DNA from: Lysinibacter cavernae
GTDB lineage: Bacteria; Actinomycetota; Actinomycetes; Actinomycetales; Microbacteriaceae
Assembly (NCBI RefSeq): GCF_011758565.1
Contig: NZ_JAAMOX010000001.1
Coordinates: 1,713,838 to 1,777,837 of the forward strand
Direction of reading: 5' to 3'
Length of the DNA stretch: 64,000 nucleotides
Shown piece after piece: positions 23,671 through 51,159 of the stretch. The stretch's first letter is position 1. Each line of letters opens with the position of its first letter. Made by a program: the position numbers and the translations under genes. The notes under the pieces are model-generated. The model did no database searches, was not told where the DNA came from, and saw only the letters and a program-made list of their open reading frames with translations.

Positions 23671-23724
23671 CCAGTTTTGTCCCCCATCCATACCCTCCAC
23701 CCCCTCTTAAGGAGAAGGAAAATA

Positions 23725-25252: not shown

Positions 25253-26470
25253 GTGACCGCAACGGAAGCGCTGGCCACCTCAGCGGTGAGCGCAGGGCGT
25301 CGAGCGCGTTGGCGTTTCCCAGTAGGCCCCAGCGTGATCGCGGCGATATGCCTCCTTGGCGTCGCCGTCCTGCTCTACCCAACAGCCGCGTCTTGGCTGA
25401 CGCAGTATGAACAGTCCCAGCGCATCGTGGCGCTGTCTGACCAGGTTCGCAACATGTCTCCCGAAAACCGTTCACAGGCCGTCGAGAAGGCCGTTGCGTA
25501 TAACGCGTCGCTCAACGGCAGCGCCGCGGTTACCGCTGGCGAACGACTGCCGCAGGCCGAGTCGCCCGGCGACCCTGAAGATCAGAACTACAACGAGCTG
25601 CTTGCCGCTGACGCAAGCGGGCTCATCGGAAGAATCAAAATCCCCGTCATTGATGCCGACCTTCCGATCTATCACGGAACAAGCGATCAGACCCTCCGCG
25701 AGGGCATCGGTCATTTACAGGGAACCGCCCTCCCCGTTGGCGGCGAGAGCACCCACTCGGTCCTCACCGGTCACCGAGGGCTCGCCGACGCGACGATGTT
25801 TACTCACCTTGACCAGGTCGCCGAGGGTGACACCTTCACAATCGAGGTGTTTGGCGAGGTGCTCACCTACCAAGTCGTCACAACGCAGGTTGTTGAACCG
25901 GAAGAGACGGAAACACTTCATGCTCAGCGAGGCAAAGACCTCATCACGCTCGTCACGTGCACACCGCTTGGCATCAATAGTCACCGTATCTTGGTCACTG
26001 GCGAACGGATTGAGCCGACTCCCCCAGAGGATCTCGCACAGGCAGGGAAGCGGCCCGACGTTCCAGGCTTCGCCTGGTGGGTAGTTGGCCTTGCCGGAGC
26101 GCTCCTGCTCACCGGTGGGTACGTTTGGTACTCTGGGCGGCCGGTTAGCCCGGGGCGCAAAGCAAACCATTCCAAAGGTTTCATTCCCGATGACCTAGGA
26201 ATGTCCAGCCGCGACGGCCATAATGAGGATGATGACTACCTCGGACCCTCTCGGCGGACGCCGACCACAGCAGGTCAGGGCGCAGCGCACCAGGCAGCGG
26301 ATCATCGCAGCGGCAGCCTCAGCATTCGCAACGAACGGCTACGCAGGAGCGAGCATCGGGGCTATCGCCGATTCACTTGGGATGACCAAAGGCGCGCTTG
26401 GGTACCACTTCGCGACGAAGGAGCTCCTCGCTCAAGCGGTAGCGAACGAAGCGCTGCACGAGATGAGTGA
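25253..26470 (+). CDS. Class C sortase (pilin polymerase) with unusually long C-terminal tail
   Basis: A 405-residue protein. Membrane segments lie at about 24-43 and 274-293, the two-anchor layout of class C pilus sortases. The catalytic triad is visible: His174 (LTGHRG), Cys236 (TLVTCTPLG) and Arg245 (NSHRILVTG). A DPED segment near 107-110 may be the lid. Its substrates should be the LPLTG proteins encoded upstream. The odd part is the tail of about 112 residues after the second membrane segment; from residue about 324 it is read in a different frame through the first 80 codons of the TetR gene. The stop codon of the ancestral gene may have been lost. Confidence 0.92.
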   Translation: MTATEALATSAVSAGRRARWRFPVGPSVIAAICLLGVAVLLYPTAASWLTQYEQSQRIVALSDQVRNMSPENRSQAVEKAVAYNASLNGSAAVTAGERLPQAESPGDPEDQNYNELLAADASGLIGRIKIPVIDADLPIYHGTSDQTLREGIGHLQGTALPVGGESTHSVLTGHRGLADATMFTHLDQVAEGDTFTIEVFGEVLTYQVVTTQVVEPEETETLHAQRGKDLITLVTCTPLGINSHRILVTGERIEPTPPEDLAQAGKRPDVPGFAWWVVGLAGALLLTGGYVWYSGRPVSPGRKANHSKGFIPDDLGMSSRDGHNEDDDYLGPSRRTPTTAGQGAAHQAADHRSGSLSIRNERLRRSEHRGYRRFTWDDQRRAWVPLRDEGAPRSSGSERSAARDE

Positions 26471-26933
26471 CATCGCCAGCCAGGGATTCGACACAGCCGC
26501 GACTGCCGTCGTCGTCTCCCCAGACGACCCGCTCGCCACGATCGTCAGATTTGCGCTCAGCGTTGGGTACCGGTACATCCACGATGTGCCAACACGCGCG
26601 GTCAACCGGCTGCTCGACGAATCGATTCACCTTCCGCTCGGCATCCCGGCGCCCTACGTCGATTGGATTCAGCTTGCCGAGCATTTGCTGCGTCAGGCGA
26701 TCGCCCTCGGGCAGCTTCACAACACCATCGACCCCGCAAAGCAGGCTGTGACACTCGTGGCAGGGATGACGGGCATCCAGCGCCTCTCGGAGCTCCTCGA
26801 CGAACGCGACCTCGTCTTGGAACGCGTCGCCGAAATGCTCACCGTCGTGTTCTCAGGGATGGGCGCGGCAAACGCCAACGACCTCGTCGGTCGCGTCGCC
26901 GCCGAACCCGGTCCTGCTCAGTTGCTTCGCTGA
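26223..26933 (+). CDS. TetR-family transcriptional regulator
   Basis: The N-terminal helix-turn-helix is clear: RQRIIAAAASAFATNGYAGASIGAIADSLGMTKGALGYHFATKELLAQAV. The remainder is a helical ligand domain; the pattern is closest to the actinobacterial ScbR/ArpA-like (gamma-butyrolactone receptor) branch, but the ligand is unknown. Three ATGs in frame (26223, 26229, 26232) are possible starts and none has a strong ribosome site. The 5' 248 bases overlap the sortase frame in another phase, so translation may depend on sortase translation. A role in control of the pilus locus is plausible from position only. It is convergent with the CNNM genes, 24 bp away. Confidence 0.85.
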   Translation: MRMMTTSDPLGGRRPQQVRAQRTRQRIIAAAASAFATNGYAGASIGAIADSLGMTKGALGYHFATKELLAQAVANEALHEMSDIASQGFDTAATAVVVSPDDPLATIVRFALSVGYRYIHDVPTRAVNRLLDESIHLPLGIPAPYVDWIQLAEHLLRQAIALGQLHNTIDPAKQAVTLVAGMTGIQRLSELLDERDLVLERVAEMLTVVFSGMGAANANDLVGRVAAEPGPAQLLR

Positions 26934-29448: not shown

Positions 29449-30711
29449 TTATGGGGTAATCACAACCCACGATTCGGTCTCATCATCCTCGTCAACGGGC
29501 GGGGCTGGCGGTGCTGGCGGGGCAACCTCAACAGGAGCGGCTGGCGCTGGCGGCGCCGCGACGGGTGCCTCTGCTGCCGGCTCGGAGGGCGGAACGTACG
29601 CTGGCTCCGGCTGTGCCTCGTCAACGGGGGCAGGCTCCGGTTCAACAACCGGTTCAGGAGCGGGAGCCGGATGCTCAGCCACAGGAACGGTCTCCACCAC
29701 GGTCGGTTCCTCAGACACCGTGGACACCACAGGATCCGGTGACGGCGAATACAGCAGCCCAGCGGTAAGGCCGGCAATGGCGACAACCGCGGCTCCCCCT
29801 GCTATGGCAACCTTCGCTCCAATACCAACCTTGCCTGCCGCCACGACAGAGGCCGCTGACGCACCGCTCGAAGCGCTCGTGGTTCCCCACGCGAGGCCGG
29901 CGATTCCTGATCCGCCAAGAATGAGCGGCGCAACGATGGAGCGCATCTGCTGCCCAATGTCGCTCATCCATTCAAACGATTGGCGGCAGTCAAGACACGT
30001 CTCAAGATGCGCGGCTACCCGGTCGGCATCGCGCTTACCGGCTTTGCGACGCACGGTTTTTGCCATGATCGACGAAACCGATTTGCATTCTTCGGAGTTC
30101 GTGCGCTCGACGTGGAGTTGCAGGTAGGCCGTCCTGAGGCCTTCCCTCGCCCGCGACGCGAGTTGCGCAACAGCGTTTGCCTTGATTCCGAGGCGGTCGC
30201 CGATGGCGTTGAGGTCGTAGCCGTCGATCTCAAGGAGCCAGAGCACCTGCTGCCAGCGCTCAGGAAGCTCGGTGAAGGCCGTGTAGACAAGCGAGCGCTC
30301 ACCGAGCCCCGCATTCACATCCGCCTCGTGAAGCTGCTCAAGAAAGCTGTCGGCATCCTCATCCAACGGAACCGTTTTGGTCTTTTTTGCCTGGTTCTTC
30401 GTGAGGTTCGCAAGCACCATGTACAGGTAGCCCCTGAACGACTCGGTTGGGCCCATCCCCCGCCTCAAGACGTCAAGGATGCTCGCAAACGCGTCGCTCA
30501 GTAAATCTTCTGCTTCTGGGCGTTTGCCCACCAGGTGCAGTGCCTGTTTAATGCCAGCGTCGTGGTGCCGAGCATAGAGCTCAGCAAACGCGGTCTGGTC
30601 GCCCCTACGCACCAGATCGCACAGTTCAGCATCGCTCGCGACGTCGTCATTCACGATGTCGTCATTCACGATGTCGTCGACAAATGTGTCGTGTTCTTCG
30701 TTTCCCCTCAC
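29449..30711 (-). CDS. ECF sigma factor fused to zinc anti-sigma-like domain, membrane segment and Pro-rich tail (copy 1)
   Basis: GTG 30711 is chosen (GAGGGGG 5 nt upstream; a longer frame to 30774 lacks this). Of 420 residues, about 26-108 are sigma region 2 (LCDLVRRGDQTAFAELYARH ... ESFRGYLYMVLANLTKN), and 142-200 are region 4 (YTAFTELPERWQQVLWLLEIDGYDLNAIGDRLGIK). Cys209, His235, Cys239 and Cys242 fit the C-x25-H-x3-C-x2-C zinc site of ZAS anti-sigma factors. A membrane helix is predicted at 301-321, then a 99-residue Pro/Glu/Ala-rich tail ending ETESWVVITP. A weaker hydrophobic stretch at 258-276 leaves topology uncertain; lysines between the two favour one span and an outside tail. It lies 87 bp after the adhesin gene ending at 30799. 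The N-terminus has a short repeat (VDDIVNDDIVNDDV). Confidence 0.88.
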   Translation of the reverse strand: MRGNEEHDTFVDDIVNDDIVNDDVASDAELCDLVRRGDQTAFAELYARHHDAGIKQALHLVGKRPEAEDLLSDAFASILDVLRRGMGPTESFRGYLYMVLANLTKNQAKKTKTVPLDEDADSFLEQLHEADVNAGLGERSLVYTAFTELPERWQQVLWLLEIDGYDLNAIGDRLGIKANAVAQLASRAREGLRTAYLQLHVERTNSEECKSVSSIMAKTVRRKAGKRDADRVAAHLETCLDCRQSFEWMSDIGQQMRSIVAPLILGGSGIAGLAWGTTSASSGASAASVVAAGKVGIGAKVAIAGGAAVVAIAGLTAGLLYSPSPDPVVSTVSEEPTVVETVPVAEHPAPAPEPVVEPEPAPVDEAQPEPAYVPPSEPAAEAPVAAPPAPAAPVEVAPPAPPAPPVDEDDETESWVVITP

Positions 30712-30798
30712 AGCTGCCCCCTCGGCATGTTGTGTATCGGTGTGCCGGGCCCCGTCGGGAGCCCGGCACACCAATGATGTGTTGTGTTCAGTTATGTG

Positions 30799-33700
30799 TT
30801 ATTTCGTTGAGGCGTTGTGGTCTGTCACACCGGAAACTACTTCCCGGCCGCGACGGCGACGCATAAACAACGCACCCAGCATGAGCGCCATGAGCGCGGC
30901 AACCACAGCGAGCGTAGAGCCCTCTGCGCCTGTCATGGTCAGCCCGCCAGCCCCAGCGGCGTTTCCACCGTTCGTTCCGTTCGGAACGGTCGGGTCCTCT
31001 GGGTCCTTCGGGTCAACCGGCGGCACCACAATCGTCGACTCGTCAAACGTGTTGACCACGGTGATGGCGAGTGCCTGAAGCTGGTCAGGCGTGCCATCGG
31101 TAATCACGGCCGCGTTATCGTATGAGTCGAAGTCAACCGTGTGGCTCACGGCTACTCCGGCATCCGTCTCTTCCGCGTAGCAGTGTGTTCCGATTGGGAG
31201 ACGGCGAGCGCCACCCTGGTCGTCAGCAAGCTGCTTCGTCTGCCCTGCCTTGATCTTGACGGTTCCCGAATACACGGTTGCGATTGTGTCGTCGCCCCCG
31301 GGAACGGTAACCGGGACGGCACAGGTCACCAGCACCTCGAACGCTTTACCCTCAGCCTGAGTGAGCGCCAGCGGCGTTCCTTCAACCTGCTTGGTGAGGC
31401 TGAGCGTGCCAGCCGAGTAGTAGTTCGTGAGCGATGCAAGCACCGTGTTGGCTGGCAGGTCCGCCGTCGCGGCGGAAGGAACGACCGTCACCGTCACGGC
31501 ATCAGCAGCGGCGTCTGCCGACCCCTTATCCGTCTCGGTAATCGAACACTCCGTGCCAAGCGGCAGACCGGTGATGACCTCGGACGTCACAGTTGTGGCG
31601 TCGTCGGAGACCGTCAATACAACGTCGTCAACGGGGATGTCCTCGTTGCCAACCTTGCAGGCAAGGGCGAAGGTCAGGCTGTTTCCGCCGGCGAACGTCT
31701 GCACGCCCTCACCAGAGAGCTGCTTGGTGATCTTGATTCCACCGAGCGCCTCAACCGCGAGGTCAAGCGTCATGTTGGTGAAGTCATCCCCCGTGAGACG
31801 GTTGGTCACCATCTTGGCAACGTCGTCACCAAGGGGCTCGTCACCGGTCACGTTTGGCGGGTCAACCGTTGCAGAGAGCGTCATGAGACCCGCGCTGCGC
31901 AGTCCGCCGTCGGCAAGCAGCTCGTTGTTGTTGTCAACGTCCTCGTTTGCGTCGGTGTTTGGGTCCGTCTGGATGCCGTTGCGCGAAGCTCCGTATCCAA
32001 ACAGCGGCCCACCCTCGGCAAACTGGTCTGCCGGCACGAGCACGTAGTAGTCGCCGGAGTCGAGCTTATTCGCGACCCAACGACCCTGGTCGTTTGTTGT
32101 GGTCTCGGCAACCATGTTCTCGCTGCCGTCTGACTCAACCTTGTAGACCTGAACCTTGACACCAGCTGGAACGCCGGCATCAACTGCTGGGTCATACACG
32201 CCGTTTTGGTCGTTGTCCTGCCAGATGAGGTCGCCGAGGCTAAACCCAAGCACCTGCACGTAAGGCTCATTCGATACAACAGGCTGCGTCGCGAAGGTCT
32301 CAGACCACACGCCAAACGATCCGATGTAGAGGTCGGCGGCTACGTTGTCGGCAGCCTGCAGCGGCACGTTCACCGTGATCTGCGTCTGCGACGTCAGGTT
32401 GCCATCTTGGATGAAGCGAACTGCCGTGACGTCGTCGAAGGATGCCGGGCATCCAGCCGAGCCGAAATCGGCTTCCGTGCACCACTTGGTGGAGCCAGAG
32501 GCGAGATCGTTTGAGGCGTCGTTTGCGCGCTGCGAAACCGACTTGGCGTCTGCGGAGGTGTAGTACCACGTTCCAGCGACGTCTCCGGTTGCACCGCCAG
32601 AGGCGGTTGGGGCTGGCAGCGCACCGGTCAGGTGCAACGTTCCCGAGTACTCAGAACCGTAGGTACGACGCTTTGCCGCAAAGTCATCCCCGTCATCACC
32701 GTTCGTTGGGAAGACATAAATTGCCTGGCTTGGCATAATGTCGGCGCCAATTGCGGTGTTTGCCCAGGTAAGCGACCAGTTCTGCAGCGAATCGGTGAAG
32801 TTGATCCGCTGATCAACGCCCATTTGCACGCGGAGGCCCTCGGTCGCGTAGGTGTTGACCGATTTGGTTGCCTGGTGCTGGTTCTTGTTGTACGTGACAT
32901 TATCTGCCCTGACATCAACCGTGTTGACGAGCGTCGTTCCTGCGGGAAGCAGCTGTGAGGCAGACGTGCAGATGTCGATGACGGGCAGCGTGTCCGTCGC
33001 AAGTCGGTCACCAAAGTTCCAGGTCAGGGTTGTTCGTCCTTGTGCGTCAACTCCAATGATCGGCCCGCCCACGCCCGACGGGGTGACGGTGCACGAATCT
33101 TCGTAGAGCAGCCCAGCAGGAAGCGTGTCAGTCACCGTCAGGTTACGAGCCGTGGCGTCTGCCAACGGCGAGGTCAGCGTCGGGGTGAGGCTCCAGGTAA
33201 ACATGTCACCAACGTTGGTCACCTTCAACAGGTCGTCGCCAGACGTCACCTTGTCAGCTGTCTTCTTGACGCCGATGCTCACGCTTTGAACGGTCAGGCG
33301 GTCACCGCGCATTCCGGCACCAAGGTGAGTATTGGGGTCATAGGTAATTGGCGACTTGTAGCCGTTATTCCATTTGTACCCAACAAGGTTGGCTGCAATG
33401 ACACCGTCGATAATTCGCTCGCCGGCGTTGGGTCCTCCATAGAATGACTCACGGGTCGTGAGTTTTGCCCGTGCAATCAGGGAGGTACCCGCGTCAAGTT
33501 TTCCATCCTTGCCGGTCACCCGGATGATGTTGACGTCTTCGAGGTTCCAGCCATCGGCGATTGGGTCAGTACTGAAGACCATGTCACCCTTGCTCTGAGC
33601 GCTCGTTCCGCAGTCCTGGCCTGCCGCAAGTTGAGGGGTCCAGTCGCCTGTGTAACGACCGGTGTTGGCGTCAAGGCTCTGCTCGAGCGAGTTGCCCCAC

Positions 33701-33888
33701 GATCCACCGGCAGCAAGCTTTCCGTATTCAACGGTAATACCCCCGGCTGGCGGGGTCGAAAGCGTCAAACTGCTCGCCCGTTCCCGAAATCGAGTATGAG
33801 AGCGACGTGAGCAGGCCCGCAGACGGGCCGCCGCTGAACGCGCCAAGCGTTTGAACGGAGTTATCCCACACGTCACACACCTGGGCAT
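30799..33888 (-). CDS. C-terminal part of a frameshifted giant surface protein (SdrD-B, two DUF5979 domains, LTMTG anchor)
   Basis: This frame continues the protein of the upstream frame (33728-35935). The homologous sequence starts at about 33745 with GGITVEYGKLAAGGSW, matching SQGIEVTYGRLVGGGSW in the paralogue ending at 37476; residues before that in this frame are not homologous. Further on come a DUF11-type region (TVTDTLPAGLLYEDSC), an SdrD-B unit with Ca2+-loop-like residues (LGDLIWQDNDQNGVYDP) and two DUF5979-type units (IKITKQLSGEG and LSLTKQVEGTP, each with paired cysteines). The end is LTMTG, hydrophobic helix, then MRRRRGR. Whether this half is made depends on a frameshift repair; see findings. 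Confidence 0.8.
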   Translation of the reverse strand: MPRCVTCGITPFKRLARSAAARLRACSRRSHTRFRERASSLTLSTPPAGGITVEYGKLAAGGSWGNSLEQSLDANTGRYTGDWTPQLAAGQDCGTSAQSKGDMVFSTDPIADGWNLEDVNIIRVTGKDGKLDAGTSLIARAKLTTRESFYGGPNAGERIIDGVIAANLVGYKWNNGYKSPITYDPNTHLGAGMRGDRLTVQSVSIGVKKTADKVTSGDDLLKVTNVGDMFTWSLTPTLTSPLADATARNLTVTDTLPAGLLYEDSCTVTPSGVGGPIIGVDAQGRTTLTWNFGDRLATDTLPVIDICTSASQLLPAGTTLVNTVDVRADNVTYNKNQHQATKSVNTYATEGLRVQMGVDQRINFTDSLQNWSLTWANTAIGADIMPSQAIYVFPTNGDDGDDFAAKRRTYGSEYSGTLHLTGALPAPTASGGATGDVAGTWYYTSADAKSVSQRANDASNDLASGSTKWCTEADFGSAGCPASFDDVTAVRFIQDGNLTSQTQITVNVPLQAADNVAADLYIGSFGVWSETFATQPVVSNEPYVQVLGFSLGDLIWQDNDQNGVYDPAVDAGVPAGVKVQVYKVESDGSENMVAETTTNDQGRWVANKLDSGDYYVLVPADQFAEGGPLFGYGASRNGIQTDPNTDANEDVDNNNELLADGGLRSAGLMTLSATVDPPNVTGDEPLGDDVAKMVTNRLTGDDFTNMTLDLAVEALGGIKITKQLSGEGVQTFAGGNSLTFALACKVGNEDIPVDDVVLTVSDDATTVTSEVITGLPLGTECSITETDKGSADAAADAVTVTVVPSAATADLPANTVLASLTNYYSAGTLSLTKQVEGTPLALTQAEGKAFEVLVTCAVPVTVPGGDDTIATVYSGTVKIKAGQTKQLADDQGGARRLPIGTHCYAEETDAGVAVSHTVDFDSYDNAAVITDGTPDQLQALAITVVNTFDESTIVVPPVDPKDPEDPTVPNGTNGGNAAGAGGLTMTGAEGSTLAVVAALMALMLGALFMRRRRGREVVSGVTDHNASTK

Positions 33889-35935
33889 CTGGCAGGGCCA
33901 GCGTTCCCGCCGTGTTATTGATACCGACGTAGGTATACATTTCTTCGTCCATCGTGGTCATACCATCGCCGGATCCCCAGCTGGAGCGACTCGTGGGGAT
34001 GATGGTGCTTGGCGCACCAAGGCTCTCGGTTGGCGCACCAATGGACTGCTCCGTGAGCGGATCGCCAGAGGCCGGAATCTTTCCGTACGACTTCACTACG
34101 GAGCCGTTAGCCGCGATAACAATCTGGTGCGTCTGGCAGTTGTCTCCTGACGCGGTCGTTCCGTCCCATCCTGGCTCGAAGCCGGCACCAAAGTTGCTCA
34201 CGCCACCCGATGATGACGGGTCAAAATTGGTGTAGCAGTTGGTAACCGGGTATTTGTCTCCAACAATGGGGTCTCCGTCTTTCCAGCCGGGAATGTTGGC
34301 CTTCATGATTGCGGAGATTGGGTAGACAACCGTGACGACACCGGCGCTGACAAGGCGGTGTGGCTCCATATTAATCTTGCCGTCGTACGACTTCTGCGGA
34401 ACGTACTGCAGGCTCGAATCCATGCCAGAGACGTTCACCTTGAACTCACCCGTTGCCTGGTTGAAGCCGTTGCACGAATACGTTCCCGACCTCATCTGGT
34501 TGTTCCCAGGAACCGTGCTGCTGCTGACAAAACTCGGGAGACCGAATTTCCCGGCATAGTACGTTGTCATTTCGCGACAGCGATTATCTCCGCTTGACGG
34601 AGCCGGCGCTGCACCGTATTGGGCGTAACGAGGGTCGATCTTGTCGGTAAAGCTCACGTTTGGGGTCAACGACTGCTGCCCGCGGACGTCAGCGCTTGCC
34701 GCCTCGATAACCGCGGTATAGGCAACAACGATGGAATCCTCAACCTTGCCGGTCACCGGGTTCAGCATGGGGACGACTCCACCAATTGGCTGGTTTCCAC
34801 CTGAAGGGTCACCCGCACCATCCGAACGCTTTGCAAGGTTAAACCGTGGCGCGGCACTTACCTCGAACGGCCCAACATCAAACTGCTCGCTGGGGATCGC
34901 ATCGTTGATCGCGGAGTAGGCAACTGCCGATGCCGTAAAGGTCGAGCCGTTTGGCGAGGCAGCACTCGGCACGAGGTTCAGCGTGTACTTTGAGTTTCCG
35001 CCCTGGGTAATGAGACCGACGTTACAGATGAGACGTACGTCACCGTTTGCCTCGGTGATGATCTGCGATTTGACCGACCGGTCCTGACGACAGGCCGTCG
35101 GGATGTTGTTCACACCGTTAACCTCGAAGGTTGGAACTGCGCCGTCAGTGCTGTGCAGGAGCACCTCAAGGATGACATCACCAACGGGCTCGATAGCGCT
35201 GCCAGCGCCTTCCTGCATACTCGTCGTGTTGATCGAGTAGTTCACGGTCACCGTATCGTTCGTTGCAACGCGGTTATCGGTCCGCGAGCAGTCATTTCCT
35301 GGCTCGTCAACGGGGCAGATACCGTTGGGGTCAAGAGGCTTTGAACCGGTTAATATCCCCTGGACACCTGGTGTATTTGGGTCGGTGTCATAGAGATCGA
35401 CCGAGAATGCCGGAATCGGGCGAAGCCCGCCGTTGGCCGACGGCGACTGACCACCGGTCACGGTGACGGGCGCGAGCGCCGTGTGCAGCGCTGGCGGAGC
35501 CTCGGCCTGCCCAACAAAGTCGGAGTGCGACGTGCTCGGCATGATCCAGCGGTAGTTCAGTGAGGGCGAGATCGCGCGAACGGTGTAGTTGCCGTCGGCA
35601 AGGCCGGCGAAGGTGTACGCACCAGTGGCATCCGTGGTCGTTTCCGCGACGATTGCTCCAGAGCCGTCAAGCAGAGCGATTTTCACGCCGGCGCGACCGG
35701 CCGATTCGTTCCCGGCTCCCGCCACGTTTGGGTCGCCAAAATCACCTGTGGTTCCCATAACGTTGTCGTTCTGGGCGCCGTCTCCGTTGAGGTCGATCCA
35801 CACGGTTCCGTGCACTCCGTCAGCGACTTCGCCAGGCACAACAGCGCCAAGAGGGCTGATTGTTGGTTCTTCGGCAGAGGCAGCCGTAACTGCGGGCAGC
35901 GTCATCATCGATGCAATGAGTCCTACGCTCAGCAT
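33728..35935 (-). CDS. N-terminal part of the frameshifted giant surface protein
   Basis: A 735-residue frame that stops 21 nt after FDPAS, where its paralogue at 37476-42035 continues without a break. It has the end of a signal peptide (SVGLIASMMTLPAVTAASAEE), an SdrD-B domain (VHGTVWIDLNGDGAQND ... GAYTFAGLADGNYTV), and the N-terminal adhesin core shared with the array (TNDTVTVNYSI, APRFNLAK, VSFTDKIDPRYAQYG, MEPHRLVSAGVVTVVYPI). The start is unsure: ATG 35935 has no ribosome site and would give a signal peptide without positive charge. In-frame codons upstream encode a fitting basic region (RRPARGRIALST) but no ATG or GTG. An out-of-frame ATG at 35988 has AGAGAG upstream. Confidence 0.75.
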   Translation of the reverse strand: MLSVGLIASMMTLPAVTAASAEEPTISPLGAVVPGEVADGVHGTVWIDLNGDGAQNDNVMGTTGDFGDPNVAGAGNESAGRAGVKIALLDGSGAIVAETTTDATGAYTFAGLADGNYTVRAISPSLNYRWIMPSTSHSDFVGQAEAPPALHTALAPVTVTGGQSPSANGGLRPIPAFSVDLYDTDPNTPGVQGILTGSKPLDPNGICPVDEPGNDCSRTDNRVATNDTVTVNYSINTTSMQEGAGSAIEPVGDVILEVLLHSTDGAVPTFEVNGVNNIPTACRQDRSVKSQIITEANGDVRLICNVGLITQGGNSKYTLNLVPSAASPNGSTFTASAVAYSAINDAIPSEQFDVGPFEVSAAPRFNLAKRSDGAGDPSGGNQPIGGVVPMLNPVTGKVEDSIVVAYTAVIEAASADVRGQQSLTPNVSFTDKIDPRYAQYGAAPAPSSGDNRCREMTTYYAGKFGLPSFVSSSTVPGNNQMRSGTYSCNGFNQATGEFKVNVSGMDSSLQYVPQKSYDGKINMEPHRLVSAGVVTVVYPISAIMKANIPGWKDGDPIVGDKYPVTNCYTNFDPSSSGGVSNFGAGFEPGWDGTTASGDNCQTHQIVIAANGSVVKSYGKIPASGDPLTEQSIGAPTESLGAPSTIIPTSRSSWGSGDGMTTMDEEMYTYVGINNTAGTLALPDAQVCDVWDNSVQTLGAFSGGPSAGLLTSLSYSISGTGEQFDAFDPASRGYYR

Positions 35936-36289
35936 CGTTGACAGCGCGATGCGTCCCCGCGCTGGCCGTCTCGGCGCGCGAGTTGCATTGAACTCTCTCG
36001 TACTTCTATTCCCTAAGATTTTTTCCTCCGTGGCACATCATGAAGCCCCCCGACCAAGCCGGAATGCTTTTGGGCAGCACAACTAGCAATGTCGTACATC
36101 GGCGGTTAAAGACAACCCACTGACACGTCGCTTACGCGCACAACAGAATTAGTTTCTGCTCAGATGAGTCCACGAGCGTTCCCCAAAAACGTTCTCGCGA
36201 CAACAGTTTATCGCAAAAACATACTTCTAACTGGGTTCGTGGCTGGCAAAAAGATGAGCATTTCACGAGACACGCACGAGGGAATCGAC
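35936..36289. other. Intergenic region between the sigma fusion and the next adhesin gene
   Basis: No separate gene is seen. It should hold the promoter of the adhesin gene starting near 35935-35990. On the minus strand GGAGGAAAAAATC at about 36011-36023 looks like a ribosome site but is followed by no standard start in frame, and TTAGGGAA is shared with the leader of the paralogue at 42036-42060. A GGGGGG run lies near 36050. Confidence 0.45.
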
Positions 36290-37483
36290 CTACTCGTCGA
36301 CCACTACCCAGCCTTCGGTTTCTCCGTCGAGGGAATCCGTGCCGTGGTCATCCGACTGCACCGGCCCAGGAGCCGAAGGGGTTTCCTGTTCCCCACCCTG
36401 CTCAACCGGCGTTGGGTCGTCAGCGCCCGGCGTCTCGGGGATCGACGTGGTTTCCGGTACGACCGGACGCTCATGGCCATCGTCCGCACCAGAGCCGACT
36501 CCCGCGAGCGCAAGCACAATCGCGACAGTTGCTCCGATAAGCACGGCACCGATGAGCGCAACGCCAGCCTTCTGACTCAGTATTCCGCCGAGTTTCAGGG
36601 CGAGCACACGACTCGCAGCGCTTGCCGCGGGAACGTCACCAAACAACCACGCGGTGAGGCCCGTCGGCGCGGCGAGCAAGAAGATCGGCGCGACGATCCC
36701 GCGCATGTGTTGGCCAACATCCTTGAGCTGCGACAGCACCGCCTTGCAGTCTTCGCAGGTCTCAAGGTGCTCCTGAACGCGCTGCTTATCCTGGGGGCCG
36801 ATGCGCTGGTCGCGCCCGTACCGGATGAGCTTTGGGCGAATCTTGGCACACGAGGCCGCCGCGGCCTCGTCAATATGCTCGGCGAGATAGGCGAGTCTGA
36901 GCCCCTCGCGAGCACGAAACGCAAGTTGCAGCACCGCGTTCGAGTTGAGGTTCATCCGGCGTCCGATAATTTCTGGGCTGAGGCCATCCACCTCGTTCAG
37001 CCACAGCACCCGCTGCCATTTTTCGGGCAGTGATTGAAACGCGCGATGCAGCACGTTTCCCTCGGCGATGTGCTCGGTTTCGTCGTCAACCGCAAGCTCG
37101 TCAAAATACTCATCCGCATGCTCAAACAGCTGCATGTCATTGTGGTTGATTCGGCTTCGGTACTTATTCGAAATCGTCGTGAACAGGTATCCGCGAAACG
37201 TTTCCTTTGGCCCGAGGCCGCGTTGCAGCGTGCTCAGGATGCTCGCGAAGGCTTCGGCTACAAGATCCTCGGCCTGCTGCGAGTCTCCCGTCACGTAATA
37301 CGCGTGCCGAAGCGCGGCCTCGTTGTGACGAGCGTAGAGCGTTGCGTAGGCGTCGAGATTCCCCTCTCGAACGGCGTTGCTCAGCTCCGCGTCACTCCGA
37401 TCGCCCTCGACTCGCTCAGCGTGGCGGAGGGCGGCAACATCCACGGTTGTGCCGTCATCGTCAAGGTGGGCGTTATCAGGCAT
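36290..37483 (-). CDS. ECF sigma factor fused to zinc anti-sigma-like domain, membrane segment and acidic tail (copy 2)
   Basis: ATG 37483 is chosen: it overlaps the adhesin stop by 8 nt (ATGCCTGA) and GGGGGAGG lies 5 nt upstream. Of 397 residues, about 33-112 are sigma region 2 (ELSNAVREGNLDAYATLYARH ... ETFRGYLFTTISNKYRS) and 146-204 are region 4 (RAFQSLPEKWQRVLWLNEVDGLSPEIIGRRMNLNSN). Cys212, His239, Cys243 and Cys246 form a likely zinc site. One strong membrane helix is at 306-329; a weaker hydrophobic segment lies at 263-281. The tail is acidic and Pro-rich and ends ETEGWVVVDE, echoing copy 1. Fusion of sigma and anti-sigma in one chain suggests release by proteolysis or a conformational change after a membrane signal (inference). 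Confidence 0.88.
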   Translation of the reverse strand: MPDNAHLDDDGTTVDVAALRHAERVEGDRSDAELSNAVREGNLDAYATLYARHNEAALRHAYYVTGDSQQAEDLVAEAFASILSTLQRGLGPKETFRGYLFTTISNKYRSRINHNDMQLFEHADEYFDELAVDDETEHIAEGNVLHRAFQSLPEKWQRVLWLNEVDGLSPEIIGRRMNLNSNAVLQLAFRAREGLRLAYLAEHIDEAAAASCAKIRPKLIRYGRDQRIGPQDKQRVQEHLETCEDCKAVLSQLKDVGQHMRGIVAPIFLLAAPTGLTAWLFGDVPAASAASRVLALKLGGILSQKAGVALIGAVLIGATVAIVLALAGVGSGADDGHERPVVPETTSIPETPGADDPTPVEQGGEQETPSAPGPVQSDDHGTDSLDGETEGWVVVDE

Positions 37484-40400
37484 TGGTGCCTCCCCCGTGC
37501 GATGCATGCCGCCTGGCGGGCAACCGCAGCAACAGCAGGACAATTCCGGCGAGCGCAAGCACAAGCCAGCTGACGCGTCCTGCATCACCTGATGTGCCCG
37601 TTACCGCGAGGGCAGCTGGGGTACCGCCGTTGGCCCCAATTCCCGGTTTGTTGCCGGTGGCTTTGGAAGCACCCTCTGGCTGCTTCCCACTCGACGCGCC
37701 GCCCTGCGTGCTTAGCTCCGTGCCTGCGCTCACCACTCGGAGGTCTCGCTCAATTGTGACGCGGATGGGCTGCAGCTCGGCCGGGTTCCCCTCGGTCACC
37801 ACCGCGGCCTCCCGATAGCTGTTGTAGTCAACGGCGCTGGCGGAATCCATGGCCCGTGGCGTCGCAAAGCAGTGCGTTCCAACGGGGAGTGCCCTTGGGG
37901 ACCCTTCGTTCGTGACCATCTGCTTCGTCTGGCTGCCAACCATCTTCACGGCACCGGAGTAGAGCGTTGCGTTGACGCTCGTACCGTTGGCAAGCGTTTC
38001 CGTGAGCTGACAGGTCACAACCACGGTATTCACGGACGTTGGCTGACGGTCAGCGGCTCCCCCGAACTCACGCTGGGTCAGCTTCAGAGTGCCAGCAGCG
38101 ACATACCGGGTGAGCGAGGCAACAACGGTGTTCGCGGCAAACTCGTCGGTGGCCGGGCTCTCGACGACCGCAACCTGCACCGGTTCGGCACCTGCTGCCC
38201 CGCTAATGCTGCATTCTGAGCCAAGAGGAAGATTGGTGATGGGGCTGCTGAGCACGGACGCGCTTCCCGCAGCAGCAACCGTGAGTGGTTCGTCAGCAAC
38301 GATGCCGCCCTGAAACTGGCAAGACACCTGGTACGTGCTCAGGCTGCCGTTGGTGAGTGTGGCCTCGGCGTCAACCCCGACGCCCTCAAGCAGCTGCGAG
38401 ACGATGAGCGTGCCAACAGGGACAACAGCGAGGTGCATGCTGTTATTAGCGAAGCCGTTGCCGTCAGGGCCGTTGCCAATAAGCGTCGACCCAACTCTGG
38501 TCGCGGCAAAGACCACGTCCTCGCTCCGAAGCGCACCCGACGCATCCGGCGCGCCCGCCGACGGGGCGAAGCCGTCAAGCTGCATCCCCTTGCCAAAGCG
38601 GTCGGCCACAATCCTCGCCGCATACGTGCCGGAGTCAAGATTGCTTGCGTGCCAGCGCCCGTCAGCATCGGTTGTCACCGTCTGCACGACGGTTTCTTCG
38701 CCTCCGGCACCAACCGCAAGAATTTCGATCGGAACGCCGGCTGGCCCCTGCCGGTCGATACCAGCGGTGAACGTTCCGTCGCGGTCAACATCCGTCCACA
38801 AACGATCGCCAAGCGTAAATCCGAGCACCCTCGTGACGGCGGCGTTTGAGACAACCTGTTGGCCGCCGAAGGTCGCCGACCACGCGCCAAAGGATGCCAC
38901 GTAGCTGTCTCCCGCGCCACTGCCGACCGGGAGGATACCAACGGTTGCGAGCACCACTGAGGCCGCGGCGAGCGAATCCGTCTGCACAAAGCGAGCGGCG
39001 GTAACGGATGCGAGCGAGGCGGGGCAGTTGTCGCCTACCTCGGCTGCCGTGCACCAGGTCACTCCTGCCGACGCAGCCCGCGAGGTGCTCTTTCCCAAGA
39101 CCGCTGCGGGGGCCGCCGAGGTGTAGAGCCACTGACCCGCGACCGTTGCTCCGGTCGCCTCTACCGTCGGGGCGGCAAGCCAATCACCAAGCCCAACGGT
39201 TCCGGCAAACTGCGAGCCGTTGGCGTCACCAGGTGCGGGCAGCACAAAGAGTACATCCGGTGCCGCGATGCTGGTGCGGCTTGAGGTGTTGGCCCAGCGC
39301 AGATTCCACTGTTGTGGGCTGTCCTTCTGCTCGATCGTCGTCCCAACGCTGAGCTCAGTACGAAGGCCCTCCGTTGCAAACACGGCGATCGAATCGCTGC
39401 CGGCGTTCATGGACGGGGTGAAGAGCAGGTTCTCGGCACGCAACTCGGCCGTAACCGAAAGCGTCGTACCGGCCGCAACAAGATGGGAAACGGTGGTGCA
39501 GAGCGACAACTTCGGAAGACCGGAGGCATCGGCAAGGTCGCCAAGGCTCCAGGTAACGGTTGTGAGCCCCGCCGCATCCTGGCCAACAACCGGCGCGTTT
39601 TCCTGCCAAGCGGCGCACGCAGCATCCACAAGCAGTCCGTCGGGGAGCGTCGCGACGACGGTCGCCCCGCGCACGGCCTCGCCGACGGGGTTTGGGGCAA
39701 AGCTCGGCGTGAGGGTCCAAGCGAGTTCGCGGCCAGCGTCCACGAGCGAATCGGCATCCGCGTCGGCCTTGACCTCAAGGTGGGCAATAGCGTGCTGCAC
39801 GGTCATCCGGTCGCCCTGCTCTGAGGAGACCAAGGGCTGGTTTGGGTTGTAGTTGAGTGGTTTGGTGTACCCGTTGTCCCACCCTTGGCCGCTGAACAGG
39901 GCGATAACCGATCCGCTTGGAATCGTTGCGCCGTCATGTGGGCCGCCGTAAAACGTCTCGCGGGTCTCTAGCTTTGGGCGAATAGTGATGCTCTGGGCAG
40001 GGTCGAGCGTGGCGTCTGGGGCCGTCAACCGAACCATGAGGATGTCGTCAACGTTCCAACCGTCGGCGACCGGATCTGCGCTGAACTCCAGCAGGCCGCT
40101 GGCCGCAGCTGCACGGCCACAGTCGTTTGCCGTGCTGCGCTGCGCGCTCCAGTCGCCACGATAGCGATGAGATGTTGCATCCAACGACTGCAAGACGTCT
40201 TGCGCCCACGAGCCTCCGCCAACGAGTCGCCCGTAGGTCACCTCGATGCCCTGACTTGCAGGGTCAAAGCCCGTCAGCGGTTTCACGACCGTCGCCAGCT
40301 TGAGGCTCAGCGAAACAAATTGCCCGGCAGACGCGCCCGTTGTGTACGGCGTCAGGACCTGCTGCGAGTTATCCCACACGGCGCAGGCCTGCGCTTGCTC

Positions 40401-42035
40401 AAGCGGGAGCACGCCGTGCGCGTTGTTAATAGACAGGTAGCCGTACTGGGCCTCGCCTGGCGTTGTCATGCCGGCCCCATCGTGACGTGCAACAACACCG
40501 GTTGGGACGAGCGGGCGACCGGACGTGTTCTCTGGATGCGGGGAGCCGTAGGCGTCCCCGGCAAGCGGGTCACCCGACGCCGGAACCTTGCCATAAAGTG
40601 TCGACGCGATGCCCCTCGCATCAATGATGAGCGGAAAGCTGCGGCAATTCTCGCCGCTCGGGTCCACGCCGTCCCAGCCTGGCTCAAACTCGCCAGCGTA
40701 ATTGTGTTGACCGTCACGGCTGGTCGGCTCAAAATCGGTGAAGCAGCTTGACACAGAGTAGGTGCCAGCAACGATCGGGTCCCCGTTCTCCCACAGGCTG
40801 CCGTCTGGGTTTCGCGCCTCGTTTGCTTTGAGCACGGCCGAAATCGGGTAGCTGATAGCGATTCGGCCAAGAGCAACCAGCGTGGCCCCGCCGAGGCTCT
40901 GGCCGTTGATCGCCGTTGACGGAACGTGTTGTCCGGACGTATCGAGCCCCTCCAGCGCGACGGAAAAGTAGCCGGTAGCCGGATCGTATGCGGTCGGATC
41001 GCATACGAACGACCCAGACTCGAACCGGTTCTCGCTTGGCGGGTTAGTGCCGGACGCTCGACCTGGCACTTTCCAACGCCCCGCCCAGTAGTCGTCCATC
41101 GCCTTACATTCAACAGGCGCAGCGCCGAAAGTCGCGAGGCGTTGGTCGATGCTCACACCAAAACGTGCGGTCGATCCGATCGAGGCCATTCCTTTTACCC
41201 CGTCTGGAGCCTCGATCGCCGCGGAATAGTTCACTACGATGGCGGCCTCAGTCTCCCCTGTGACCGGGTTGACGACGTAGGCACGCCCGGCATCGTCGGC
41301 AACGCCGCCGGGGGTTCCACCGTTTACGAGGTCAAACCGAGGCGTCGCAGACACCTCAACTGGGCCAAACGCTACCGACTCGCTTGTCGCGGCGCCGTCG
41401 GAGGAGGCCACCCCCGTCAGCTCATACGTCGAACCGTTTGCGGAGTTTCCCGTCGCAACCACATCGAGCGGAACCGCCCGAACGCCGCTGCTCTCGACCC
41501 TGCCGATATTGCAAACCAGCACGGAGGTGCCGTCCGCATCCGTTGTAATACTGGATGCTGGCACACGCCCCGTCTCGCATGCCGCAGGAAGTCCGGTCTG
41601 CGGCAGCGTCACAAATCTGACCTCCGCGCCACCGCGCTGAACGAGCGTCGCTTCTACAACCGCGTCCTCGATGACGGTGATTGCTTCTTGCCCGGATTCC
41701 TTTGCAATTGAAACGGCGAAAAATGCGGATGACACATCGTTGGTGAGCACACGCGCGTCGTCGGTGGCGCAGTCGTTCCCCGCGGCGACAGCAGGGCAGT
41801 CTGCGCCGGGGTCGGCAAGCGGCAGCGTGCCCGTCTGGAGGCCGTTTGCTCCGGCTTCTGGCGAGCCCGCGTATGTGCCAAGTTGAAGTTGGACGTCCGA
41901 GATATCCGTCGTCGGATCTGGCTGCGCATCTGTTGCCGATGCCGGTTCAACGGCCGTCATCGGCAGTCCAGCAAGCAGGACAAGCCCGGCAAGTGTTGCC
42001 CCAAAAAACCGCTCCCGGCGGTGACGTCTTAACAT
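37476..42035 (-). CDS. Giant surface adhesin, intact member of the sigma-linked subtype (LAVTG anchor)
   Basis: A 1519-residue protein with ATG 42035 preceded by AGGGA. The signal peptide has a basic start (MLRRHRRERFF), hydrophobic core and ASA cleavage near residue 34. The N-terminal core shared by the array follows (LTNDVSSAFFAVSI, ATPRFDLV, ARFGVSIDQRLATFG, VALGRIAISYPI). Next come DUF11-like units, an SdrD-B unit (LGDRLWTDVDRDGTFTAG) and two DUF5979-type units (LIVSQLLEGVG, LKLTQREFGGA) with cysteine pairs. The end is LAVTG, a hydrophobic helix and PARRHASHGGGTNA. The anchor motif lacks the proline of LPxTG, so a class E-like sortase encoded elsewhere is a possible partner. Its stop overlaps the sigma-fusion start. 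Confidence 0.88.
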   Translation of the reverse strand: MLRRHRRERFFGATLAGLVLLAGLPMTAVEPASATDAQPDPTTDISDVQLQLGTYAGSPEAGANGLQTGTLPLADPGADCPAVAAGNDCATDDARVLTNDVSSAFFAVSIAKESGQEAITVIEDAVVEATLVQRGGAEVRFVTLPQTGLPAACETGRVPASSITTDADGTSVLVCNIGRVESSGVRAVPLDVVATGNSANGSTYELTGVASSDGAATSESVAFGPVEVSATPRFDLVNGGTPGGVADDAGRAYVVNPVTGETEAAIVVNYSAAIEAPDGVKGMASIGSTARFGVSIDQRLATFGAAPVECKAMDDYWAGRWKVPGRASGTNPPSENRFESGSFVCDPTAYDPATGYFSVALEGLDTSGQHVPSTAINGQSLGGATLVALGRIAISYPISAVLKANEARNPDGSLWENGDPIVAGTYSVSSCFTDFEPTSRDGQHNYAGEFEPGWDGVDPSGENCRSFPLIIDARGIASTLYGKVPASGDPLAGDAYGSPHPENTSGRPLVPTGVVARHDGAGMTTPGEAQYGYLSINNAHGVLPLEQAQACAVWDNSQQVLTPYTTGASAGQFVSLSLKLATVVKPLTGFDPASQGIEVTYGRLVGGGSWAQDVLQSLDATSHRYRGDWSAQRSTANDCGRAAAASGLLEFSADPVADGWNVDDILMVRLTAPDATLDPAQSITIRPKLETRETFYGGPHDGATIPSGSVIALFSGQGWDNGYTKPLNYNPNQPLVSSEQGDRMTVQHAIAHLEVKADADADSLVDAGRELAWTLTPSFAPNPVGEAVRGATVVATLPDGLLVDAACAAWQENAPVVGQDAAGLTTVTWSLGDLADASGLPKLSLCTTVSHLVAAGTTLSVTAELRAENLLFTPSMNAGSDSIAVFATEGLRTELSVGTTIEQKDSPQQWNLRWANTSSRTSIAAPDVLFVLPAPGDANGSQFAGTVGLGDWLAAPTVEATGATVAGQWLYTSAAPAAVLGKSTSRAASAGVTWCTAAEVGDNCPASLASVTAARFVQTDSLAAASVVLATVGILPVGSGAGDSYVASFGAWSATFGGQQVVSNAAVTRVLGFTLGDRLWTDVDRDGTFTAGIDRQGPAGVPIEILAVGAGGEETVVQTVTTDADGRWHASNLDSGTYAARIVADRFGKGMQLDGFAPSAGAPDASGALRSEDVVFAATRVGSTLIGNGPDGNGFANNSMHLAVVPVGTLIVSQLLEGVGVDAEATLTNGSLSTYQVSCQFQGGIVADEPLTVAAAGSASVLSSPITNLPLGSECSISGAAGAEPVQVAVVESPATDEFAANTVVASLTRYVAAGTLKLTQREFGGAADRQPTSVNTVVVTCQLTETLANGTSVNATLYSGAVKMVGSQTKQMVTNEGSPRALPVGTHCFATPRAMDSASAVDYNSYREAAVVTEGNPAELQPIRVTIERDLRVVSAGTELSTQGGASSGKQPEGASKATGNKPGIGANGGTPAALAVTGTSGDAGRVSWLVLALAGIVLLLLRLPARRHASHGGGTNA

Positions 42036-42186: not shown

Positions 42187-45100
42187 CTAGCTCAGGTCAA
42201 CTGATTTGCGTCGCCTGATCATCATTCCGGCTCCGAGGATCAGCAGCAGCGCGCCGCCAAGCGCACCCCAGCCGAACTCGGTTCCGGTGACTACAAGACC
42301 GCCAGGTTTGCTCTGCTCATCCGCAGGCTTCTGCGGAGGAACGATAGCCTCAACCGGTGCTTTCTCAACGGCCTGAACAACCGTGGACGTTGCACTTGTC
42401 ACCAGCGGATTTGCTGCGTCGACCGGGTGACCGGTCGCAAAAGCGGTGTTGATGACCTCGCGAGCTTGTTCATCCCCCTCGGTGATGACGTACGTTGCGG
42501 TGCAGTGAACGGTGTCACCCGGCGCAATCGTCGCCAGAGAGTCTTTGCAGGTAATTGCAGAGAGCCCCTCCAAGCCGTCATCAATAATAACATCGTGCAT
42601 CGACAGGTTTCCTGTGTTTGTGATGTCAAACCCGAAGGTTACAGTGTCGCCGGCGTCAACGTATCCGTCGCTGTCAGCATCCGTCACCTCATCGATCGTT
42701 TTGATCAGTTCGAGCGACGGCCGGGCGTCGAGCGGCTGGAGGACGGTGTCTTCAAGGCTCTCAACGGCATCACCAGACGGGTTCTTGCCAGTCGCATAGG
42801 CGTCATTCACGATCTCCTCTGCGTACACGTCCTGCTCGGTCACCGTGTAGGTGGCTTCACAGACCATGGTTGCGCCGGCAGCAAGCACACCGTCGGTCAC
42901 GTCGCAGTCGAGCGCGCTGAGGCCCTTGAGGCTGTCAACGATCTCCACATCGGTGAGCTCAACGTTGCTCGTGTTCTGAACCGTCAGCTGGTAGGTGATG
43001 ATGTCGCCTGCGTCGTTGAGGCCGTTGCCGTCCTCATCGCTCATGCCGGTGATCTCCTTCTTCAGGTCAAGCCCGAGGATGAGGTTCGTGTTGACCGTGA
43101 CGGAGTCATCGTCAGCAACAACAACGTCGTTCGGGTCAACGGACGTGACCTCAGCCGTGTTGTCCACCGAGCCGTTCATCACGTCGTCAACCGTGACGTC
43201 AACGGTCGCGCGGCACTCGAAGCCCTCACCTGGCAGGAGCTCTGCGATGCTTGGGTCTCCCGTGGCGGTGTCACAGGTCAGCGCGCTCAGACCGGCGAGG
43301 TCGTCGCTCAGGTCAACATTCAGCAGCCTCGTGTTTCCCGTGTTCTCGACGGTAAAGAGGTAGTGAATGACGCTGCCCTCGTCAACAAGCTGATCGGCAT
43401 CGGTGTCGACGCTTTCAACCGTCTTGACCAGCGAGATCGTGCGGACCGCGTCAAGCGGAACGGTAACCTCGGCAGGGTTCGAATCAACCGGGCGACCGAG
43501 TGCATCGGTTGCGCTTGCCGTTGCCTCGTTGGTGAGGGTCTCCGCCAGCTGGTCTGCCTCGGTCACGGTGTAGGTGGCCGAGCAGGTGGTGGATGCCCCA
43601 GCAGCAAGTGTGGTCGCCGCACAGGTCACGGCGCTCACACCGGGAAGGACGTCGGTGATCCCGAGGCCCGTGACGGTGTCGTTTCCGGTATTGGTTACGG
43701 TGAAGCCGTACGTGAGTACGTCTCCCTCGTCACGCAGCGTGTTCGAGTTGCTGTCGGCCCATGCCGTCTCGCTCTTGACGAGCGTCAGGACGGGAAGCAC
43801 CTCGAGCACACCGAAGTTGACGTTGACCGGGTCGCTGCTTCTCGCGAGTCCGAGGTCGAAGGTCTGAACGGGAACCGGGTTGGCCGCAGGATCGGCGGTC
43901 AGACGCCATCCCATCGCCGCGAGGTCGTCCGTCATCGTCACGGAGTACGAGCCGGAGTGCAGGCCGTCGAAGGAATAGGCACCCTGCGCATCCGTTGTGG
44001 TGGTCATCGAGACGGCTTCGTCGTCACCAGCGCCACCGTCGTCAACACCGTCAGGCCCAAACGAGTAGCCAGAGAGTTCCATCGTGATTCCGGGAACCCC
44101 GGCTTCGCCGCTGTCGTGCACGCCGTTGGCGTTGGCATCGTTCCACACGATGTTGCCGATCGAGGATGCCGTGACCTTGGTCGTCGTGCGCCCAGCCTCG
44201 CCAATAATCAGCGAGAGGCCTTCGATCTTGGTGCTCGCAATCGAGTTCTTCAGCAGGTCACCCTTGAGCGAGTTGTCTGCGTCAAAGTTGAGGTCGATGT
44301 ATCCAAAGCCACCGGGGACAACGGGGATCGTCCGCACCTTGATTGCGGTCGCGTCGGCGAGCGGGGTTGCACTCCACACAATGCTTGCGCTGTGCGGGTC
44401 AGCCTGCAGGTCCGCGAGAGGAGCGTTGGTAAACCACAGTGACTCAACGCCAAGCGAGCCGGTTGTTTCGAGGTAGGTGAAGTCACCGGTGAAGGTGGTT
44501 CCACGTCCATCGGCTGCGTTTGGCAAAATGTCGACGAGTTCGGCAGAGCCGACCGGTGCCGCGAGGCGGTTTGCCCATGACAGTCGGTACGGAACCGGGT
44601 CGCCAACCTCGATCTCGGCTGGTGCACGCTTGGCGACGGCGAATTCGCTGAAGCCGTTAACCGCGATACCCGAGGTAGAGGTTCGGTATGACTCAAGCGA
44701 GGAGTCGTCCGGCGACGAGATCACGGCTGACGAGAGCAGGGTCGCAGGAACAGGAGCGTTCACCGGAACCTGGGCCTCGTATGTCAGTACCGGCAGCGGG
44801 TCACCCACTGGCCAGTCGCCAAGTACCCAGGTCAGGGTGGAGACGTTATTGGCATCGTCAGCGGTGCACGAGACGCCGTCTGGGCCGGGATCGGCCGCAA
44901 CAAATACCGGGTCTACGCCGTTAATCGCGATGGCCGAGCCAGACAGGTATTCGAGGCAGGAAGGAATGTTCACCACGATCTGAACGTCGTGGACAGTTGG
45001 TGACTGCGACGAAAGGGTCAGGGTTGAAGCCACTTCAAACTTCACCGGCGCACCGGGAGCAGCGCTCGAGACGCCTGGTGACGAGATAGACGTGCGGACA

Positions 45101-46938: not shown

Positions 46939-47121
46939 TCGAACTCCTAGAATCATCTGTATGGACCGTCCCACACGCGCACGTGATTCTTGCCCGAGGG
47001 GTGGCTTCACAGGGTTACGACTGATTCGTTAACGCTCAATTACGAAAGATGCTGACGATTTTTCGCTTTTTCTTCTTCCTCAGGACGAGGGTTCTGTCGG
47101 GACGGTAAGCCCAAAACCGAC

Positions 47122-47695
47122 CCGTGGATATGGGGATGCCCCCGCCCCAAGCAAACACGCAAGGACGAGGGCACCCACTCACACACCGCTACGACGAAGC
47201 AGCAACCCTCCGACGACGAAGCAGCAGCAACCCACCAGCAACCATCAGCAACAACACCGCAGCAACCATGCCACCAAGCGACACACCAGTGAGCGTCAAC
47301 CCACCAGGAGCAGCACCAGCAACCACAGGAGCAAGCACAGACGACTCAGCAACAACCGAATCACCACTCACCGTCTCACCAGAAGCAACAGCAGTATTAC
47401 TCAAATTGCCACCACGATCCGCAGCGGTCACCACATACGTTCCCGTAAAGACCGTCTGCTCACCAGGAGCCAACGACCCACTGAAACCATCAGCAGCCGT
47501 CGGGCCACTCGTCAACGACAACTGCTGACCAGCCTCATTCGTAAACGACTTCTCATTGACCGCCACACCGTTCAACGGCATGTTGCCAACGTTGCGCACC
47601 GTAAAGGCATAATTCACGGTATCCCCAACAGCAAACGACCCACCAACCGGCACATTTGTCACCGTCTTCGCCAAACTCAACGCAGGCGCAGGATC
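47122..47695. repeat. 574-bp identical block, copy 1
   Basis: Bases 47122-47695 read identically to 51244-51817 by eye. The block covers the last DUF11 repeat, the LTLTG anchor, the stop codon and 67 bp beyond it of the adhesin gene ending at 47189. Its base use is peculiar (CA-rich on the plus strand, with GTT and GCT codons in the gene) compared with the rest of the gene. Confidence 0.9.
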
Positions 47696-51013: not shown

Positions 51014-51159
51014 GATTTGAATCCCCCCATTGATGTAGATGCTCAATCCATACGCAACTGTCCTGCAGCGCGTTGACCCCCAAGGTTTGATTGAGCGAGC
51101 TTTAGAGTAACTGCCCTAGCTTAAAAGTTGCCGTGCAACCTAAACATTTCGTCGCAAAC
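51014..51159 (-). promoter_or_regulatory. Leader with elements shared with the 55.9-kb paralogue
   Basis: On the minus strand GTTTGCGACGAAATGTTTAGG (51139-51159) lies about 126 nt before the start, and TTGGGGGT plus a GGGGGGA ribosome site lie closer in. The paralogue starting at 55897 has GTTTGCGGTGAAATTATAAGG at about 131 nt and the same TTGGGGGT and GGGGGGA. This is probably a promoter and untranslated leader kept after duplication. Confidence 0.5.

What the first reader, a model, noticed from the sequence alone, without database searches (positions are those of the whole stretch)
33728..33888. Adhesin gene split by one base at a G5 run
The upstream frame ends FDPASRGYYR-stop while the downstream frame continues GGITVEYGKLAAGGSW, exactly where the intact paralogue reads FDPASQGIEVTYGRLVGGGSW. 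Removing one G from the run at 33740-33744 (CGG GGG T on the coding strand) restores SRGITVEYG. It could be a true null mutation, a sequencing error, on/off variation of the run, or a +1 ribosomal shift at CGG-GGG. All the downstream 1000 residues, including anchor, keep normal codon use, which argues for recent or reversible loss.
Basis: seen in the sequence. Interest (0 to 1): 0.65.

Follow-up and report, generated by a model that had tools for sequence, protein, structure and literature searches.

The report
Recently broken bacterial surface adhesin gene
A large gene for a cell-surface adhesion protein in an actinobacterium is cut in two by a one-base reading-frame slip, and probably lacks a normal start signal too, so it looks like an ordinary, recently inactivated gene and not an on/off switch.

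Summary
Window 33728-35935 (-) and 30799-33888 (-) are two halves of one wall-anchored adhesin whose frames differ by one base, with the switch at the run 33740-33744. Together they cover an intact same-genome paralogue (L024, 1733 aa) with no residues lost. The genome is not generally error-ridden: by eye no other mid-gene shift was found in 860 kb (23% of it), by a scan that recovers 103 of 120 implanted indels. The 3' half keeps coding character and has no stop, which only limits the loss to less than about 3.7% neutral change.

New here: the 5' end also looks defective. No ATG, GTG or TTG precedes the signal-peptide core, unlike the sister adhesin genes. Two lesions favour a genuine recent null over one base-call error or a reversible switch. 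A five-base run is short for phase variation, and nothing supports programmed frameshifting.

Side result: the gene is one of 18 adhesins just upstream of a membrane-type ECF sigma gene (18 of 28 such sigma genes; 17 of 261 sampled genes). Only this adhesin of the 18 is split. Read data would settle error versus mutation.

The parts
33728..36037 (-). 5' half of the split adhesin gene (open frame; first ATG at 35935): signal-peptide core, SdrD-B-like domain, N-terminal adhesin region; ends at a premature stop
30799..33741 (-). 3' half in the other frame: DUF11-like, SdrD-B and DUF5979 domains, TG-type sorting signal, membrane span, RRRR tail; open from the run to its stop at 30799 (mechanical ORF reaches back to 33888)
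33740..33744 (-). G5 run (C5 on +) where the reading frame switches by one base
35936..36016 (-). 5' end: a TTAGGGAA block shared with both intact paralogues, then no ATG/GTG/TTG in frame before the signal-peptide core; probable second lesion
29449..30774 (-). intact ECF-type sigma gene directly downstream (sigma70 r2/r4; HLxxCxxC zinc-finger-like segment, membrane span and proline-rich tail read from the sequence)
37476..42035 (-). intact tandem paralogue (1519 aa, 38% identity), same kind of unit
36290..37588 (-). sigma gene of the tandem unit (432 aa)

Best explanation
This is a recently inactivated (pseudo)gene for a wall-anchored fibrillar adhesin. Shown: a one-base length change at a short G run puts the last ~980 codons, including the wall-anchoring signal, out of frame. 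Shown: no ATG, GTG or TTG precedes the signal-peptide core in the upstream frame. Inferred: the change arose by replication slippage in the cell's DNA. Inferred: translation would give at most a ~735-residue exported fragment without anchor and, from internal starts, a fragment without signal peptide, so the anchored adhesin is not made. Inferred: intact paralogues cover the function, and the downstream sigma gene is left without its usual partner protein.
For: Split and homology to intact copies. Frame switch found blind by codon model. Assembly otherwise clean: in 859,739 bases (22.9% of the genome) the scan flagged 22 sites in the 400-kb sample, 3 in the window, 1 in L024, 0 in L025, 10 in 274.9 kb of adhesin-bearing stretches and 11 in further stretches, two of them repeats. 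All but this one look like gene ends or ordinary gene boundaries by eye. Power 103 of 120. In the 400-kb sample 370 G or C runs of five or more lie in coding sequence, and no mid-gene shift was seen there. Second defect: both intact paralogues start 5-8 nt after a shared TTAGGGAA block, whereas the split gene has no start codon there. Of 61 anchored-protein rows 55 have a canonical start with two or more K/R before the signal core; the split gene's 5' piece has a well-placed core and no canonical start before it (the one other such row, L184, has its core misplaced at residue 0). Recent.
Against: No reads and no second strain could be examined; the genus holds one genome. The start-codon argument is not certain: GGAGG lies 5 nt before an ATC, which table 11 lists as a rare start (recalled), and which codon is ancestral is ambiguous. 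A weak start at ATG 35935 is possible. No stop or further indel has accumulated in either half, so decay itself is not shown. In one search the signal core was not found in one intact gene (L093), was placed at the very first residues of two more (L184, L185), and one gene has only one K/R before it (L073).
Confidence: 0.62

Rival explanations
1. Assembly or base-calling error: the gene is intact in the cell and the consensus mis-counts the G run.
For: Single-base indels at homopolymers are the typical residual error of long-read assemblies (general knowledge); this genome is in 4 contigs. The 3' half shows no decay. A related record, Leucobacter coleopterorum NZ_CP049933 (L111), shows what indel-rich sequence looks like: 8 flagged sites in 14.7 kb, the orthologue of the tandem paralogue in four frame segments, and flags in genes beyond it.
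Against: No other clear mid-gene shift in 860 kb of this genome at 86% detection power. It does not explain the missing start codon.
Confidence: 0.22
2. Reversible on/off (phase-variable) run: slippage at the G run switches the adhesin in a fraction of cells.
For: Surface adhesins are classic phase-variable genes (general knowledge), and G/C tracts are nearly all of the variable tracts in Propionibacterium acnes, also an actinobacterium (PMC4746626, abstract and passages). The break lies exactly on the run.
Against: Five bases only; that study counted runs longer than six. 370 similar G/C runs in sampled genes show no shift. 17 of the 18 sigma-linked adhesins are single open frames. Both paralogues have other codons at this site, and a start defect would keep the gene off in either phase.
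Confidence: 0.1
3. Programmed +1 ribosomal frameshift or transcript slippage makes the full protein from the split gene.
For: The frames overlap and the offset is of the right sign; a paused CGG-GGG could slip in principle.
Against: No stop directly at the slip site (it is four codons later), no unusual RNA structure (z -1.23, 21 of 200 shuffles fold as well), not conserved: both paralogues are single frames with other codons there. Homologues of the following domain in G019, G304, G180 and G288 lie in single open frames.
Confidence: 0.03
4. Natural gene fission: two separate functional proteins.
For: Both halves are long and open.
Against: The cut is inside a stretch conserved in the paralogues (FDPAS to GITVEYG); the 3' half has no signal peptide although it carries a wall-anchoring tail.
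Confidence: 0.02

Closest known systems
Frameshifted pseudogenes in bacterial surface-protein families
   Same: Single-base frame shift at a short homopolymer, anchor lost, intact paralogues present
   Different: Nothing notable; two lesions are likely but no advanced decay
Homopolymer-tract variable surface genes (e.g. the variable G/C tracts of Propionibacterium acnes, PMC4746626, passages)
   Same: G run inside a coding gene for a surface protein
   Different: Run of five only, no length variation shown, only one of 18 sister adhesins affected
Sortase-anchored fibrillar adhesins with SdrD-B, DUF11 and DUF5979 domains
   Same: PF17210 and PF19407 above cut-off, PF01345 below it; TG-type sorting signal
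   Different: No named NCBIfam adhesin family above its cut-off
ECF48/ECF52/ECF53-type sigma factors with fused zinc-finger anti-sigma and membrane span (PMC8999054 passages, PMC5826349 abstract and passages)
   Same: Sigma domains, zinc-finger-like segment, membrane span, proline-rich tail in the downstream gene
   Different: No carbohydrate-binding module reported by Pfam in the tail; gene sits behind an anchored adhesin; ECF group not assigned

Membership tests
Recently inactivated gene (pseudogene) | Open homologue exists and this copy cannot make the full product by normal decoding | tested here: met
Recently inactivated gene (pseudogene) | Lesion present in the organism's DNA, not only in the assembly | not testable with these tools
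   no reads; indirect support from the error-rate control
Recently inactivated gene (pseudogene) | More than one lesion or signs of decay | tested here: inconclusive
   no canonical start before the signal core, but an ATC with a good ribosome site exists; no stops in the 3' half
Phase-variable homopolymer locus | Long hypermutable run | tested here: not met
   five bases; 171 G runs of five or more in 355 kb coding sequence
Phase-variable homopolymer locus | Run length varies between cells or strains | not testable with these tools
   one genome in the genus
Programmed +1 frameshift site | Slip site and stimulators, conserved in homologues | tested here: not met
Sortase-anchored fibrillar adhesin | Signal peptide, Ig-like or SdrD-B-type domains, sorting signal with membrane span and basic tail | tested here: met
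   the signal core is present although its start is doubtful; sortase attachment itself not tested

The most novel reading that the evidence does not exclude
Each of 18 wall-anchored adhesins in this genome is the partner of its own membrane-tethered ECF sigma factor, whose outer tail could sense the adhesin. This unit, with adhesin off and sigma intact, would then be a natural knockout in which the orphaned sigma stays permanently on or off and re-routes adhesin expression, so that loss of one adhesin is itself a regulatory state.
Probability: 0.07. Interest if true: 0.65.

Novelty: new member of a known kind. Interest (0 to 1): 0.25.

Why it matters
The split itself is ordinary: one adhesin of a large family lost recently. 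It matters as a caution that a short G run in an adhesin is not evidence of phase variation, and because checking it exposed a large set of adhesin and sigma-factor gene pairs in one genome that may each form a sensing unit.

Tried and rejected
Closest strains: the genus search returned only the window's own genome; a first scan of genome contigs with the 3' half found nothing; a second with three paralogues found five relatives, the best Leucobacter coleopterorum at 39%. There the orthologue of the tandem paralogue is itself frame-broken, as are flagged genes beyond it, so it says nothing about the window's run. Four homologous loci from three unnamed family members were read for context: single open frames, no HMM shift.

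RNA structure at the junction: ordinary. Internal starts for the 3' half exist (ATG 33888 and others) but give no signal peptide. A reading in which the start is an ATG 20 nt after the TTAGGGAA block, in another frame (stop after 19 codons), was considered; it would also need a frame break near the 5' end, and I could not choose between it and a lost start codon.

Flagged frameshift sites elsewhere were judged by eye, not by homology. The least clear are L061:18856, L073:17080 and window 26300 (a class C sortase whose tail overlaps a TetR-type gene); I read them as gene ends or overlaps. An earlier count said 11 flagged; the count is 10.

Full report
What is there. On the minus strand, ORF 33728-35935 (735 aa from its first ATG, open back to 36037) and ORF 30799-33888 overlap in different frames. 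The upstream one carries an SdrD-B-like domain; the downstream one DUF11-like (below cut-off), SdrD-B and DUF5979 domains and a TG-type sorting signal with membrane span and RRRR tail. The genome has an intact homologue elsewhere (L024:4570-9771, 1733 aa) and one in tandem (window 37476-42035, 1519 aa). BLASTP puts the end of the first half at paralogue residue 763 and the start of the second at 759, at 56% and 61% identity, so the halves are one gene cut by a one-base frame offset at the run 33740-33744.

Is the shift real DNA? I could see no reads. As a control I trained a codon-usage HMM on 20 evenly spread 20-kb stretches and let it place frameshifts. It flagged 22 sites in the 400 kb, 3 in the window, 1 in L024 and 0 in L025. 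I inspected each: apart from 33748 they look like gene ends or boundaries, many with a start codon overlapping the previous stop. In 18 adhesin-bearing stretches (274.9 kb) it flagged 10, and in 11 further stretches 11, again ends or boundaries by eye. The detector found 103 of 120 random implanted indels. Altogether 859,739 distinct bases, 22.9% of the genome, were examined. In the 400-kb sample 370 G or C runs of five or more lie in coding sequence. The assembly is thus not indel-rich, unlike the L. coleopterorum record (8 flags in 14.7 kb). One isolated error remains possible.

How old? The 3' half has 2,943 nt without a stop in its frame before its end, and codon log-odds like its paralogues (0.268; paralogue 3' part 0.241). 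About 109 random substitutions, 3.7% divergence, would be needed for a 95% chance of a stop. So 'recent' is a loose bound.

A second defect. A block TTAGGGAA precedes the start of both intact paralogues (ATG 7 nt later in the tandem copy; TTG 5 or 8 nt later in L024). It is present at 36016 in the split gene, but no start codon stands at those distances, and no ATG, GTG or TTG follows in that frame until 35935, inside the hydrophobic core. In a control of 61 anchored-protein rows, which include both halves of the split gene, 55 had a canonical start with two or more K/R before the core. Of the six others, one is the 3' half; one is the split gene's 5' half, with a well-placed core and no canonical start before it; one has a single K/R (L073); in one no core was found (L093); and in L184 and L185 the core was placed at the very first residues, which I take as misplacement. 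Caveat: GGAGG lies 5 nt before an ATC, a rare start in table 11 (recalled), so I call the start defect probable. If it is real, a single homopolymer error does not explain the gene, and flipping the run would not switch it on.

Alternatives. Phase variation needs a hypermutable run; five G's are common here (156 G5 and 15 G6 in the sample). A 90-genome study of Propionibacterium acnes searched runs longer than six and found 54 variable tracts (PMC4746626, abstract and passages). A programmed +1 shift has no support (paralogues differ at the site). Literature was seen as search listings, with passages or outlines of PMC5826349, PMC4746626, PMC2831843 and PMC8999054.

Context. The split gene is followed by an intact sigma gene with sigma70 regions 2 and 4, a HLxxCxxC segment, a membrane span and a proline-rich tail. 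The genome has 28 such genes by profile (30 rows, two being tails of others); of 58 other genomes searched with the same model at a stricter cut-off, 17 have 1 to 7 each and 41 none. With 1.5-kb flanks, 18 of 28 lie just downstream, same strand, of a gene with a sorting-signal-like tail, against 17 of 261 sampled genes by the same loose test (many of those 17 look like plain membrane proteins; Fisher 1.8e-12) and 4 of 27 loci of relatives. The profile was partly built from sigma genes found beside adhesins, and one of the 18 is 435 nt away. All 18 upstream genes but this one are single open frames (one was seen in two overlapping pieces, L094 and window 3-5009). The published ECF48/52/53 groups have this sigma, zinc-finger and membrane layout (PMC8999054 passages). 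In the listings I saw no title or abstract on adhesin-sigma pairs; I do not claim there is none.

Verdict. Observation confirmed. Most likely a genuine recent null of one adhesin in a large family (0.62), next an isolated assembly error (0.22), then phase variation (0.10). Ordinary in kind.

Noticed in passing
window 29449-30774, 36290-37588; L024:3281-4561; L123-L150: 28 ECF-type sigma genes of one architecture in this genome, 18 of them directly downstream of a gene with a cell-wall sorting-signal-like tail (17 of 261 background); possible adhesin-sensing sigma pairs, strongly expanded here.
   Followed up: partly
window 29449-30774, 36290-37588; L024:3281-4561; L111:8570-10078: The outer tails of these four sigma proteins end in a short W-containing motif (for example ETEGWVVVDE, ETESWVVITP); unexplained.
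   Followed up: no
window 25253-26470 and 26223-26933: A class C sortase whose C-terminal tail overlaps the start of a TetR-type gene (named from its sequence, not from a search) by about 245 nt, next to an SpaH-type pilin gene at 23677-25140.
   Followed up: no
L111 (Leucobacter coleopterorum NZ_CP049933.1, 185364-200024): The order adhesin like window 42187-47010, tandem-paralogue orthologue (66%), sigma gene is shared with the window; the second adhesin there is in four frame segments and genes beyond it are flagged too, so the record may hold many indels.
   Followed up: partly
window 47189-51046 and 51311-55897: Two further giant adhesins in tandem that share near-identical N-terminal regions and an identical C-terminal stretch, suggesting recent duplication or gene conversion.
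   Followed up: no
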